Shown piece by piece: positions 8,163 to 12,265 of a stretch of DNA of 64,000 nucleotides (the stretch's first letter is position 1; each line of letters starts with the position of its first letter). Position numbers and translations under genes: made by a program. This DNA comes from Geranomyces variabilis (Eukaryota > Chytridiomycota > Chytridiomycetes > Spizellomycetales > Powellomycetaceae). Location: contig JADGJP010000005.1 in assembly GCA_027603065.1 (NCBI GenBank), positions 793,270-857,269 of the forward strand, read 5' to 3'. Below the pieces are notes generated by a model. That model did no database searches and was not told where the DNA came from. It saw only the letters and a list, made by a program, of their open reading frames with translations.

Positions 8163-8258
8163 ACATGTCGTTGGTATTGTGGCGATGTGTCCTTGGTTGC
8201 CCGCGAGATGACATGTCGTTGGTATTGTGGCGATGTGTCCTTGGTTGCCCGCGAGATG
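8163..8258. repeat. Perfect 48-bp tandem duplication
   Basis: The 48 bases at 8163-8210, beginning ACATGTCGTTGGTATTGTGG, are repeated without change at 8211-8258. They lie about 350 bp upstream of the RNA-repair gene start, and a perfect copy implies recent origin. Confidence 0.95.
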
Positions 8259-8606
8259 AAAACAACGCTCGACGCAAGGGGAGGAGTTGAGAGGGAGAGC
8301 GATGGTCCGAACAGCCCGATCTTCTCAGTTGGGTGGACTCAAACGTGGCCAAAAACGCGCCATCTTTTGGAACTCGCCCATCTCAAGGAAACGGGGGTGA
8401 ACGTGCAAAATATTCGGCTCCAGTTTTGTCAAAGGACTTATCGAAGTGCGGCGTGGGATGTCGGTGCGTGTTGTTGGGGACATGCGGTTGCAACTCTCTT
8501 TAAAACAGCACATACTCGAAGTTCTTCGAGCAACAACAAGCGACCCCAACTGAGAGGACAAAGACATCACATTGAGCTCTATTCGATTAACCTGAATCGG
8601 ACCAAG

Positions 8607-10682
8607 ATGAGCCTCCCTACATCACTTGACATCGACCTGCTCAATTCTTATGTTTCGGACAAGCGTCTGAAATGTCAAAGCCATCCGACGGAGGACCTCA
8701 TCATATGGAATTACTCGGAAGTCGTCCAGTTCAAAAAACTTTGGGACGATATCACTCTACAGTGTCGGGGCCTGATTACGGACACGGCCGGAAATGTTGT
8801 TGCGCGCTCGTTTCCAAAATTCTTCAACGAAGACGAGCGGTCTTATGAAGCGACCTCGAGGTATACCGTCATGGCAAAGGTGGATGGAAGTCTCGGCATC
8901 TTGTTCTATCACCGCAACCGCTGGGTTCTTGCTAGTCGTGGATCTTTCACAAGTTCTCAAGCTGGTGTTGGCATGGAGATACTTCTCTCCCGCTATGAAG
9001 GCTTACTGGATGTTTTGGACAAGCGACTCTCCTACAATTTCGAGATCATTTACCCGGAGAATCGCATCGTTGTTAACTATGGGGACGAACGGAAACTCAT
9101 TTTTCTGACCGCTTTTCGACCAAATGGCGAGGAGGTTTTCGCCATGGACGGTGACGATTCCACCGTGCCGAACAAGGTCTCGATACGTGACCTCATGGCA
9201 GAGTACGGTGTCATCCCTGTTACGCAATTTGATCAAGCCAGCATCGCCGAGCTGAAAGCAAGAGATGTTTGCAACGAGGAAGGATACGTGGTCCGTTTCG
9301 AGAATGGGACTCGTATCAAGATCAAGTTCGCCCAATATGTTGCGCTTCATCGCCTCGTAGGAAATATCAACGAGACGATGCTGCTGCAGGAATTCACCGC
9401 CGGTAAAACATTCCTTGACGTTTGTGAACAAATTCCCGACGAATTCATGAAGTGGGCCGAGCGAGTATGGAGCAGGATCGAAACGAAATATGCTACCTTA
9501 CAAGCCGAACTGGAGGCAACTTTCGCTACGGCCAAGGAAGGGACATCGAGCAGGGGAGAATTTGCTCGGAAGGTTCTGTCTTTAAAGAATCGCCGTGCCT
9601 TGTTTGACAGATACGAGGGGAAAAATCCACGAGAAAAACTGTTGCGTTTGATTGATGTGAACGATCTCACAGATGCGAACTCACCAGACGGTGGAGGTGA
9701 ACTCGAACTCGCTCCCGCGGGTGGCATGTCGGGTAAACGCGCGGGACCCCCGCAACAAGCTTCCCCAGTGCTTGTCATCTTGTTTGGACTTTCGGCTTCC
9801 GACAAAAGCAACTTCGCGCAACGATGGGTGACATCGCACGTCAACAGCATTGTCATCAATCGCGACTCTTTGTCACTCTCGCTGTTCGCGTCCGAATCGG
9901 CCTGTCTCGACACGGGAAGGAAGGGCAGCGTTGAGCGACGCAAGTTGTTGGATGCTCTGGAGCTGGATATGATCAGAAACGCACTCCTACGTGGTGTCAG
10001 CGTTCTTGTCGACAATACTGCTTATTTATCGCTGGACCAGATTCGCAAACTTCTTCAAGCGGTTCCTTCGGGTTGTTCAGCGCAAGTTCGCATTTTTGAT
10101 GTGCCTGTGGCAGATTCTGTGGATCGACTCACTGATGGGGAACCTGCGAGAACGCTTGACTTGACTGTGATTGACAAGCAGGCTGGTCTATGGGAAGCAA
10201 ATTCGCACCTTGTCGAGTCATTTGTTGCTCAGGAGCTCGCTCAACGTTCAACATTTTTGGTGCAAAACTCGGAACTGCCCCCTTGCTACGTCTTTGATAT
10301 TGACGGTACTCTGGCTATATCCGGAAACAGGAATCAATACGACGAAAGCAAGGTGCATTTGGACGCACCGAATCCAGATGTAGTGGATTTGGCACGAACC
10401 CTGCACGGTGCAGGTATGATAGTCCACATCTGTACCGGCCGAACCGAGACTTGTCGTCAGGCAACCGAGACCTGGTTGGCGGGAAACGGAATCCTCTACT
10501 TTACGCTTCTGATGCGTGAAGTGGGCGATACGCGTCCCGATTACTTGGTCAAACAAGAAATGTGGACTCGGATTGCTGAAGCAAACTATATTCGAATGCT
10601 GGTCGACGATAGGGGACAGGTGGTGCATCATGCCCGAAGCCTGGGCTTGACTGTTGCTCAGGTGGCGTACGGGGAGTTCTGA
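8607..10682 (+). CDS. RNA ligase (Rnl1-type) - polynucleotide kinase - 3' phosphatase fusion
   Basis: An intronless gene of 691 residues from ATG 8607 (MSLPTSLDID). The same frame is open upstream, but that part is repeat-derived. Residues 1 to about 370 are a nucleotidyltransferase of the T4 Rnl1 group. The AMP-accepting lysine is Lys91 in AKVDGSLGILF; YNFEIIYPENRIVV and EEGYVVRF then KIKFAQYVALH follow as the later conserved motifs. Residues about 390-545 are a P-loop kinase like the N-terminal half of T4 Pnkp, but the Walker A reads GLSASDKS (394-401), with Asp399 where glycine is expected, and INRDSLSLS lacks the usual arginine three after Asp. Residues about 558-691 are a HAD phosphatase with FDIDGTLA (Asp564, Asp566), then GDTRPDYLVKQEMW and LVDDRGQVV. 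This architecture is known from T4-like RNA repair and a baculovirus enzyme of nearly the same length; fungal Trl1 instead ends in a cyclic phosphodiesterase. It probably heals and seals broken RNA, with a doubtful kinase step. Confidence 0.93.
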   Translation: MSLPTSLDIDLLNSYVSDKRLKCQSHPTEDLIIWNYSEVVQFKKLWDDITLQCRGLITDTAGNVVARSFPKFFNEDERSYEATSRYTVMAKVDGSLGILFYHRNRWVLASRGSFTSSQAGVGMEILLSRYEGLLDVLDKRLSYNFEIIYPENRIVVNYGDERKLIFLTAFRPNGEEVFAMDGDDSTVPNKVSIRDLMAEYGVIPVTQFDQASIAELKARDVCNEEGYVVRFENGTRIKIKFAQYVALHRLVGNINETMLLQEFTAGKTFLDVCEQIPDEFMKWAERVWSRIETKYATLQAELEATFATAKEGTSSRGEFARKVLSLKNRRALFDRYEGKNPREKLLRLIDVNDLTDANSPDGGGELELAPAGGMSGKRAGPPQQASPVLVILFGLSASDKSNFAQRWVTSHVNSIVINRDSLSLSLFASESACLDTGRKGSVERRKLLDALELDMIRNALLRGVSVLVDNTAYLSLDQIRKLLQAVPSGCSAQVRIFDVPVADSVDRLTDGEPARTLDLTVIDKQAGLWEANSHLVESFVAQELAQRSTFLVQNSELPPCYVFDIDGTLAISGNRNQYDESKVHLDAPNPDVVDLARTLHGAGMIVHICTGRTETCRQATETWLAGNGILYFTLLMREVGDTRPDYLVKQEMWTRIAEANYIRMLVDDRGQVVHHARSLGLTVAQVAYGEF

Positions 10683-11490
10683 TAACGTACACTAGACATC
10701 ATAACATTGTTTTTGAAGGAATCTGACCAACCATGGAATAGCCTTAGCTATGGATTGGATGTCCCCCAAACGTGGCGCTTTTCCCGCTGCGGGAGCAATA
10801 CCGTACTCCTTACGGACTGCGCAAGGAGGATTTTGAACGAGTTTATTATGTACAAAAATTAAATTATCTTGCAGGTGTGAAGCGCGCGTCCTTACGGACC
10901 TCGAGTCCCTCATCTGAGCTTCCCTGGTAAGGGAAGTGGGGAATCGGCCAGGAAGGGGGAAAAGGAAAGGAAAGCCTGTTTTCAAGCTGATATATAAAAC
11001 AATCAGTGAGTCATACTTCACGCCGGCTTCGCAACGATTCTGTTGGCTTATGCCTCCACCGCCAGTGCATCAAAAGGCGGCGTTACGGGGGTACGAGACG
11101 CTGTGGAACTGCAGTTGTGAGCGCCGGCGCCGCGCTTCGTGGATGCAGACGGAATCTGCATTGTGGAAGGCGGACCCTCAGCCTCCCGTAGTACTTGTGC
11201 AAGCGTTTTTTACACCGAGAGCCCCCTGTTGCTTGCATTTCTCTGCTCCATTTCTGCATCACAGGTCGTGGGAATCGCTGTTGCCAAAGCTCAGGGCCTC
11301 AGCCCAGTTACGGCCGCCCTGGAAAACCGGCCGGTAGTCGTGGGTTGTGGTGGTGGAGCAGCGACTTGCGGCCAGTGTCAAAGTTTTCTGTGACTCATAT
11401 GAGGTGTGCTTTCCCCTACAGCATAAAAAGCTCCCGGCCCAACTCTCTCGCCCCCGCTCGCTGGATTCCAGGCCCACTTACAAAGCAACC
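10683..11490. other. Intergenic stretch between RNA-repair gene and LOG gene
   Basis: About 800 bases with the right copy of the 55-bp direct repeat (10882-10936). A shorter TCCTTACGGA motif also appears near 10808. One GTG-initiated frame at 11139-11393 has no ATG and no recognisable content. I see no gene here. Confidence 0.6.
10882..10936 (+). repeat. Right copy of 55-bp direct repeat bounding the 6.45-10.94 kb block
   Basis: Same orientation as 6450-6504, with six mismatches. It ends in a perfect hairpin, CTTCCCT-GGTA-AGGGAAG, and also holds GTCC-TTAC-GGAC. The two copies enclose 4.4 kb. Confidence 0.8.
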
Positions 11491-12265
11491 ATGACCACCA
11501 CCACAACCACCACCTCAGCCCTCACACCGTCAACTATCTGCGTCTTCTGCGGCTCCTCGACCGGCACCAACCCGCTCTACGCCGCGACCGCACGCGACCT
11601 CGGCGTCGCAATCGCCCGCCGTGGCCTCGGTCTCGTCTACGGCGGCGGAACCCACGGTCTCATGGGCGCCGTCGCTAACGCTGCTCACGGCGCGGGAGCT
11701 CCCGTCGTCGGGTTCATCCCGCAGGCCATGACGCAGTTTGAAGGGCTTTTGCCCGTGGGCGAGATGCACCTTGTGCCGGATATGCACACACGCAAGCGCA
11801 GGATGGCGGAGGAGGCCGGCGCGTTTATTGCCTTGCCTGGAGGGTTTGGTAAGAATTTGGTGGAGCGCCGCATGCCGTCCAAAGCATACCCCCAGCTGGC
11901 CCTTTTTTTTTTCTTACCTTTACGTTTGTTTATTTTTTTCAGGCACTCTCGAAGAGACGTTCGAAATGCTCACCTGGTCCCAACTCGGCATCCACCGCAA
12001 GCCCATTGGCATTCTCAACACCGACGGCTTCTACGCACCGCTGCTCGCGCTCATCGACCGCGCCGTTCAAGACGGGTTCATCAGACCGGAGGCGCGCGGC
12101 CTGCTTGTCGTGCGCGACACGGTTGACGAGCTGATGGAGGCGGTTATGGCGTTTGAGGACGCGCCTGCGGGCGCGAGATACGGATTGGACTGGACTGGAA
12201 ATGGAGCGGGCAAGAAGATCGCGCTGCCGGCCCTCGGTGAAAAGGGTGGGGTTGTTGATGTATAG
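11491..12265 (+). CDS. LOG-family cytokinin riboside 5'-monophosphate phosphoribohydrolase
   Basis: Two exons, 11491-11848 and 11943-12265, make 226 residues, close to the family norm. The ATG at 11491 opens a Thr-rich leader. Then come ICVFCGSSTGTNPLY and LVYGGGTHGLMGAVA, the Rossmann-like nucleotide site of the lysine-decarboxylase-like fold. The signature PGGFGTLEE (116-124), whose glutamates are catalytic in LOG enzymes, is completed across the intron, which supports the splice. The family hydrolyses N6-modified AMP or AMP-type nucleotides to free base and ribose 5-phosphate; in plants and some fungi this releases active cytokinin. No signal peptide is seen, so it is probably cytosolic. 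Whether the substrate here is a cytokinin precursor or a general purine monophosphate cannot be told from sequence. Confidence 0.9.

What the first reader, a model, noticed from the sequence alone, without database searches (positions are those of the whole stretch)
8607..10682. A three-module RNA repair enzyme (Rnl1 ligase, Pnkp-like kinase, 3' phosphatase) in a fungal chromosome
Seen: Lys91 in AKVDGS, EEGYVVRF and KIKFAQYVALH of an Rnl1 ligase, then a P-loop module, then FDIDGTLA, GDTRPDYLVKQEMW and LVDDRGQVV of a T4-Pnkp-type phosphatase, in one intronless 691-residue frame. Known: fungi normally seal tRNA with Trl1 (ligase-kinase-cyclic phosphodiesterase). The ligase-kinase-phosphatase order is known from phage-type repair and from a baculovirus enzyme of nearly the same length. 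Inference: a horizontally acquired repair enzyme that could restore RNAs cut by anticodon nucleases or other ribotoxins.
Basis: partly seen in the sequence, partly recalled or inferred. Interest (0 to 1): 0.87.

Follow-up and report, generated by a model that had tools for sequence, protein, structure and literature searches.

The report
Chytrid RNA-repair enzyme with broken kinase
A chytrid fungus carries, beside the usual fungal tRNA ligase, a phage-type RNA-repair enzyme whose ligase and 3'-phosphatase parts look intact but whose built-in kinase has lost catalytic residues, so it probably mends broken RNA with help from another kinase.

Summary
In detail: 8607-10682 (+) is one intronless 691-codon frame with a T4 Rnl1-type ligase, a P-loop module and a T4-Pnkp-type HAD phosphatase. 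The host looks like a chytrid near Powellomycetaceae: the nearest recognisable upstream gene matches Powellomyces hirtus best (61%), and the protein's only named eukaryotic relatives among the 120 listed are Geranomyces and Powellomyces. The genome also has Trl1, a DNA-type PNKP, Clp1-type kinases and an RtcB2-like ligase.

Walker A reads GLSASDKS; the equivalents of T4 Pnkp Arg38 and Arg126 are Ser and Gly. Arg38 is kept in 167 of 167 kinase-bearing relatives outside this clade but 1 of 6 inside; Arg126 in 162 of 167 but 0 of 6. The ligase and phosphatase residues checked are kept. Only the kinase module diverges faster than expected. Elsewhere in the family the kinase was deleted or decayed repeatedly (8 changes on one quick tree, at least 4 forced).

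Best reading: a horizontally acquired ligase-phosphatase with a pseudokinase scaffold; 5' phosphates come from elsewhere. Function is inferred.

The parts
8607..10682 (+). Intronless gene for a 691-aa RNA ligase / degenerate kinase / 3'-phosphatase protein (P0001); single match in the host assembly
8607..9653 (+). T4 Rnl1-type ligase module, residues 1-349. R54, K71, K91, D93, G94, E146, E225, G226, K238, K240, Y244 kept
   Evidence: PHROG Rnl1 family over residues 21-349; profile match reaches T4 Rnl1 residue 362 of 375; residue counts
8877..8879 (+). Lys91, the expected adenylylated lysine (motif KxDGS)
   Evidence: K in 123 of 123 fused-type rows; role by homology, recalled
9765..10256 (+). 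Pnkp-type kinase module, about residues 387-550, degenerate
   Evidence: AAA_33 32.4 bits
9786..9809 (+). Broken Walker A, GLSASDKS (residues 394-401); Asp399 at 9801-9803
9873..9875 (+). Ser423 at the position of T4 Pnkp Arg38
   Evidence: R in 167 of 167 kinase-bearing rows outside the clade, 1 of 6 inside
10137..10139 (+). Gly511 at the position of T4 Pnkp Arg126 (lid)
   Evidence: R in 162 of 167 outside the clade, 0 of 6 inside
10278..10679 (+). T4-Pnkp-type HAD 3'-phosphatase module, residues 558-691
   Evidence: Pfam HAD_PNKP 558-691, whole profile; D564, D566, T568, R575, R612, D645, K649, D667, D668 present
10296..10310 (+). DIDGT catalytic motif (residues 564-568)

Best explanation
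The gene encodes a horizontally acquired, phage-type RNA end-repair enzyme in a chytrid. Its HAD domain removes a 3'-phosphate (and probably a 2',3'-cyclic phosphate), leaving 3'-OH; its Rnl1 domain adenylylates Lys91 and seals that end to a 5'-phosphate, leaving no 2'-phosphate scar, unlike Trl1. Its own kinase module is a pseudokinase kept as a scaffold, so the 5'-phosphate comes from another enzyme (Trl1 kinase, Clp1-type kinase or PNKP) or is already there. Shown by computation: domain order, retained ligase and phosphatase residues, lost kinase residues, faster kinase divergence, repeated kinase loss in relatives, co-occurrence with Trl1. Inferred: all activities, the scaffold role, the source of the 5'-phosphate, and repair of toxin- or stress-cut RNA.
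For: Domain and PDB matches. Kinase residues: Walker A in 167 of 167 relatives outside and 4 of 6 inside the clade; Arg38 167/167 against 1/6; Arg126 162/167 against 0/6. Ligase residues: 9 of the 11 checked are identical in 123 of 123 fused-type rows, the other two in 122 with one gap. Kinase-to-ligase identity ratio 0.67 in five clade members against 0.80-0.96 in six hand-picked control groups, phosphatase-to-ligase 1.06 against 0.92-1.16. Thirteen relatives keep ligase and phosphatase with only 17-78 aa between them, three more have decayed kinases; intact-to-lost needs 8 changes on a 115-row tree, at least 4 forced by starred branches. Still constrained: kinase identities of 0.32-0.46 within the clade, no stop in any of 6, clade-specific invariant residues such as L461, R462, C490, L508. 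Trl1 (both its ligase pieces and its kinase over Pfam cut-offs; CPD), PNKP (PNK3P 148 bits, AAA_33 56 bits) and two Clp1-type places are in the same genome. T4 Pnkp makes 2',3'-diol ends while Trl1 leaves a 2'-phosphate (PMC3400036, passages); yeast Trl1 phosphorylates 5'-OH mRNA fragments (PMC6949252, passages).
Against: D420 (T4 Asp35) and D469 are kept and the AAA_33 match still passes its cut-off, so weak kinase activity or nucleotide binding is possible. The Powellomyces member keeps Walker A and Arg38, and pairs of it with P0002 and P0003 show little or no excess kinase divergence (z 0.0 and -0.8). Five intact-looking relatives also lack the Arg126 equivalent (1 D, 3 Y, 1 gap), so that residue alone is not decisive. 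If 5'-OH ends are the main substrate, losing the kinase looks costly.
Confidence: 0.6

Rival explanations
1. A fully trifunctional enzyme: the kinase works despite an atypical P-loop, and the protein alone heals and seals 2',3'-cyclic-phosphate/5'-OH breaks like T4 Pnkp plus Rnl1.
For: Whole domain order kept; G394, K400, S401, D420, D469 present in the window protein; AAA_33 over its cut-off.
Against: Gly-to-Asp in Walker A and loss of both Arg38 and Arg126 equivalents in the same protein; faster kinase divergence; Geranomyces member lacks the P-loop Lys as well.
Confidence: 0.12
2. The enzyme works on ends that already carry 5'-phosphate (metal-dependent nuclease or decay products with 3'-phosphate), so a kinase is not needed at all; the kinase fold serves only for dimerisation or ligase docking.
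For: Kinase deleted outright in 13 relatives, with 4 changes on the tree; in the bacterial Pnkp1-Rnl-Hen1 complex the ligase contacts the kinase domain and kinase domains dimerise (PMC4411300, passages).
Against: Those relatives have dispensed with the scaffold too; few known RNA breaks have 5'-PO4 with 3'-PO4 (recalled).
Confidence: 0.2
3. An enzyme on the way to loss: formerly useful, now under relaxed constraint as a whole.
For: Kinase decay; patchy occurrence in the listings.
Against: Ligase and phosphatase residues are all kept and phosphatase identity is normal for the ligase divergence (z -0.5 to 1.6); open frame in six of six clade proteins, though P0006 ends before the phosphatase on a 2.3-kb contig.
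Confidence: 0.05
4. A contaminant or assembly chimera of phage or bacterial origin.
For: Relatives are largely phage, bacterial and metagenomic; no intron; GC3 0.54 is at the low end of 11 neighbouring frames (0.52-0.75).
Against: Clade includes annotated proteins of two chytrids; nearest upstream gene best matches Powellomyces; 857-kb contig with fungal-type genes on both sides.
Confidence: 0.03

Closest known systems
Phage T4 Rnl1 + T4 Pnkp tRNA-repair pair
   Same: Same ligase family, same HAD phosphatase, same order of chemistry; profile of the family matches T4 Pnkp over nearly its whole length and T4 Rnl1 to residue 362 of 375
   Different: Two separate phage proteins; the chytrid protein is one chain and its kinase lacks the Arg38 and Arg126 equivalents and a normal Walker A
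Baculovirus AcNPV 694-aa RNA ligase/kinase/phosphatase (recalled, Martins and Shuman 2004; not seen here)
   Same: Ligase-kinase-phosphatase order in one chain of similar length (recalled)
   Different: All three activities were reported for it (recalled); no sequence comparison could be made here
Bacterial Rnl1-Pnkp gene pairs and the rarer Streptomyces/Catenulispora fusions
   Same: Same modules in the same order; kinase residues intact
   Different: Of 80 GTDB loci kept, 63 have both genes as separate frames (50 within 150 bases) and 5 are fused; 29-40% identity; outside the metagenomic fused clade in the trees
Bacterial Pnkp1-Rnl-Hen1 complex (4xrp)
   Same: Pnkp1 is the best PDB match of the C-terminal half
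   Different: Separate subunits with a Hen1 methyltransferase; kinase active (PMC4411300, passages)
Fungal tRNA ligase Trl1
   Same: RNA ligase plus end-healing in one chain; both contain an RNA_lig_T4_1 domain
   Different: Trl1 has a 2H cyclic phosphodiesterase and leaves a 2'-phosphate; the host has a separate Trl1
Horizontally acquired RNA ligases of bdelloid rotifers
   Same: RNA ligase genes of foreign origin in a eukaryote, raised during fungal attack (PMC11258130, section 13 and passages)
   Different: Other organisms; no kinase-degenerate fusion is described in the parts read

Membership tests
T4 Rnl1 RNA ligase family | Nucleotidyltransferase motifs (KxDG, EG, KxK and others) | tested here: met
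T4 Rnl1 RNA ligase family | Pfam RNA_lig_T4_1 cut-off | tested here: met
   57 bits against 28.3
T4 Rnl1 RNA ligase family | NCBIfam TIGR02308 equivalog cut-off (narrow T4 RnlA group) | tested here: not met
   63.4 bits against 242.25
T4 Pnkp-type HAD 3'-phosphatase | DxDGT and the other acceptor/metal residues | tested here: met
   Pfam 123.8 bits against 27.6
T4 Pnkp-type 5'-kinase | Walker A GxxxxGK[ST] | tested here: not met
   GLSASDKS
T4 Pnkp-type 5'-kinase | Arg38 (acceptor) and Arg126 (lid) equivalents | tested here: not met
   Ser423 and Gly511
T4 Pnkp-type 5'-kinase | Asp35 general base | tested here: met
   D420
Trifunctional ligase-kinase-phosphatase (baculovirus type) | Module order in one chain | tested here: met
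Trifunctional ligase-kinase-phosphatase (baculovirus type) | Three measured activities | not testable with these tools
   needs purified protein
Trifunctional ligase-kinase-phosphatase (baculovirus type) | Common descent with the baculovirus protein | not tested
   no baculovirus protein in the collections searched
Fungal Trl1 | Cyclic phosphodiesterase domain (PF08302) in the same chain | tested here: not met
   no such domain in P0001; the genome's only match is on C53

The most novel reading that the evidence does not exclude
A eukaryotic class of ligase-phosphatase RNA-repair enzymes that has repeatedly thrown off its own 5'-kinase and works with a host kinase: in these chytrids the kinase became a pseudokinase scaffold, and repair runs as a scarless second pathway beside Trl1, with Trl1 or Clp1 lending the 5'-phosphate.
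Probability: 0.4. Interest if true: 0.72.

Novelty: new variant of a known kind. Interest (0 to 1): 0.56.

Why it matters
Textbook fungi seal RNA with Trl1. This genome adds a phage-type enzyme, and an RtcB2-like ligase, to Trl1. If the enzyme works without its kinase, it separates 3' healing and sealing from 5' healing and makes a clear test possible: which host kinase supplies the 5'-phosphate, and which RNAs are broken in chytrids. The repeated loss of the kinase in relatives suggests that the 5'-kinase step is the dispensable one.

Tried and rejected
Host and genome: no tRNA or Rfam family in the window, no repeated TTAGGG at the contig end. PADLOC gave nothing for P0001. Plasmid records: 43 match, none over 80% of the protein. 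A first scan of GTDB contigs with P0001 alone found nothing; the alignment scan found 424 relatives, best 80 kept. Single-protein scans of viral contigs with P0018 and P0025 found nothing, which only excludes close kin.

Origin of the metagenomic fused relatives (P0007 and others): not resolved. They sit on contigs up to 1,020,498 bases (P0130). None of the 12 bacterial gene pairs placed on the tree fell in their 98-row clade. Three viral contigs with separate genes do fall in the corresponding 61-row clade (99/91); two of these carry phage genes, so fused-versus-split is not a clean marker of eukaryotes. The exact sister of the chytrid clade and the donor are unresolved. Giant viruses were considered and neither shown nor excluded.

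A foreign base composition was considered and not supported: GC3 0.54 lies within the 0.52-0.75 range of 11 neighbouring frames.

Limits of the counts: the 167 comparison rows include many close relatives (Streptomyces, P0154-P0169); 18 rows were set aside before the count (13 with the kinase deleted, 3 with a decayed kinase, 2 fragments), so 167 of 167 for Walker A is partly by definition. P0157-P0169 and two fragments were left out of the tree. Chytrid pairs are not independent. Kinase residue roles in T4 Pnkp are recalled; the two source papers are not held.

Full report
What is there. The frame 8607-10682 (+) codes for 691 aa without stop or intron. Pfam finds an RNA_lig_T4_1 domain, a weak AAA_33 and a strong HAD_PNKP domain; PHROGs finds the phage Rnl1 and Pnkp families. 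The best solved relatives by sequence are bacterial Pnkp1, T4 Pnkp and T4 Rnl1. A profile of 69 homologues reaches residue 362 of the 375-residue T4 Rnl1 chain, so the ligase C-terminal domain is covered.

Host. The window is the last 64 kb of an 857,269-bp contig of a 23.8-Mb, 91-contig assembly. Neighbouring frames carry DUF726, RNA12, aldehyde dehydrogenase, ubiquitin hydrolase, Hsp70, adaptin, HAT/KAT11 and thymidylate kinase domains. The DUF726 frame upstream has its best match in Powellomyces hirtus (61% over 97%), with other chytrids next among named hits. DUF726, RNA12 and LOG-like neighbours are split over two frames, as if by introns; this gene is not. Of the 120 listed homologues in each of two searches, the only named eukaryotes are Geranomyces michiganensis (49%) and Powellomyces hirtus (46%), both Powellomycetaceae. 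Two unnamed proteins are closer (P0002 55%, P0003 54%).

Relatives. In phage records 3079 match, best 34%, with ligase and Pnkp as separate genes in the best rows. Of 80 GTDB loci kept from 424, 63 have both modules as separate frames, 50 of them within 150 bases, and 5 (four Streptomyces, one Catenulispora) are fused. Of 80 viral loci kept from 503, 79 have a ligase frame, 4 a Pnkp frame, 3 both, none fused. A careful 77-row tree without kinase columns puts the chytrid-type proteins together (100/100, 5 rows) in a 61-row clade (99/91) of metagenomic fused or kinase-deleted proteins, together with three viral-contig pairs L251-L253. L251 and L252 carry phage genes; the one L253 frame tested matched nothing.

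The kinase is broken. In a 191-row alignment, positions equivalent to T4 Pnkp Arg38 and Arg126 were read. Numbering comes from the alignment; the importance of these residues is recalled, since the T4 papers are not held. Among 167 kinase-bearing rows outside the clade Arg38 is invariant and Arg126 is Arg in 162. In P0001-P0006 the Arg38 position is S, A, H, Y, R, A and the Arg126 position G, E, I, gap, S, A. Walker A is lost in the window protein (GLSASDKS) and in Geranomyces (GLPGMHTR), kept in the other four. By contrast the 11 ligase positions are identical in all fused-type rows apart from one gap at two positions, and the phosphatase positions are present wherever the module is, apart from one I and two E.

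Tempo. At ligase identity 0.55-0.60 the kinase identity is 0.39 in 7 clade pairs and 0.52 in 36 other pairs; at 0.60-0.65 it is 0.45 (4) and 0.60 (15). Phosphatase identity is similar in both sets (0.61 against 0.63; 0.66 against 0.67). Kinase z-scores run from 0.0 to -5.0; the two weakest involve Powellomyces. The kinase-to-ligase ratio is 0.67 against 0.80-0.96 in six hand-picked groups. So the kinase is relaxed, but at 0.32-0.46 identity it is far from random, and a few residues are invariant in the clade and rare outside (L461, R462, C490, L508). That fits a retained scaffold better than free decay.

Repeated loss. Thirteen relatives keep ligase and phosphatase with 17-78 aa between them; P0057, P0061 and P0149 have shortened, decayed kinases. 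On a quick 115-row tree intact-to-lost needs 8 changes, at least 4 of which starred branches force. A viral contig, L179, has a ligase frame followed by a 151-aa phosphatase-only frame.

Mechanism. The likely reaction is 3' dephosphorylation, then sealing to a 5'-phosphate made elsewhere. The host has candidates: Trl1 with a GAGKT P-loop and a tRNA-ligase kinase domain over its cut-off, a DNA-type PNKP with GSPASGKS and two Clp1-type places. Trl1 phosphorylates 5'-OH mRNA fragments in yeast (PMC6949252, passages). T4-type healing yields a 2',3'-diol, Trl1-type a 2'-phosphate (PMC3400036, passages), so the two pathways leave different junctions. What breaks the RNA is unknown; ribotoxins are one candidate, as proposed for rotifer RNA ligases (PMC11258130, passages).

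Novelty. Searches for RNA ligase with chytrid, fungal, horizontal-transfer, pseudoenzyme and biological-conflict terms listed no paper whose title or abstract start describes this enzyme; only 12 to 15 papers per search were listed and most subscription papers are not held. A review of RNA-repair systems that I recall (Burroughs and Aravind 2016) is not held and may mention such fusions. The module set is known; the pseudokinase form and repeated kinase loss I have not seen described.

Odds. Kinase inactive about 0.88; ligase and phosphatase active about 0.85; RNA repair role about 0.65; 5'-phosphate supplied in trans about 0.45. These are judgements.

Noticed in passing
Host assembly G000:C21:328601-329659 (loci L166-L168): A single-frame RtcB of the bacterial RtcB2 (release-factor-coupled) kind in a fungal genome that also has Trl1: NF007153 297.7 bits (cut-off 407), TIGR03073 252.5 (cut-off 271.8), Pfam RtcB over cut-off. 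In E. coli RtcB2-PrfH protects against colicin E3 (PMC9223846, passages). The only PrfH-type match is below cut-off on another contig, where most control genomes also ring.
   Followed up: partly
P0047, P0058, P0059, P0062-P0065, P0144, P0147, P0148, P0150, P0152, P0153: Thirteen metagenomic ligase-phosphatase proteins with the kinase cut out (17-78 aa between modules); host organisms unknown.
   Followed up: partly
L179:10001-11497: Viral contig with an Rnl1 frame followed by a phosphatase-only 151-aa frame, kinase absent.
   Followed up: no
P0066, P0067: Ligase-only proteins (387 and 401 aa) that group with the chytrid clade in the ligase tree (99); whether the rest is lost or lies beyond an intron is unknown.
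   Followed up: no
window 8163-8259: Exact two-copy 48-base tandem repeat just upstream of the gene.
   Followed up: no
window 11347-12265: LOG-type (lysine decarboxylase-like, cytokinin-activating) gene split over two frames downstream of the enzyme.
   Followed up: no
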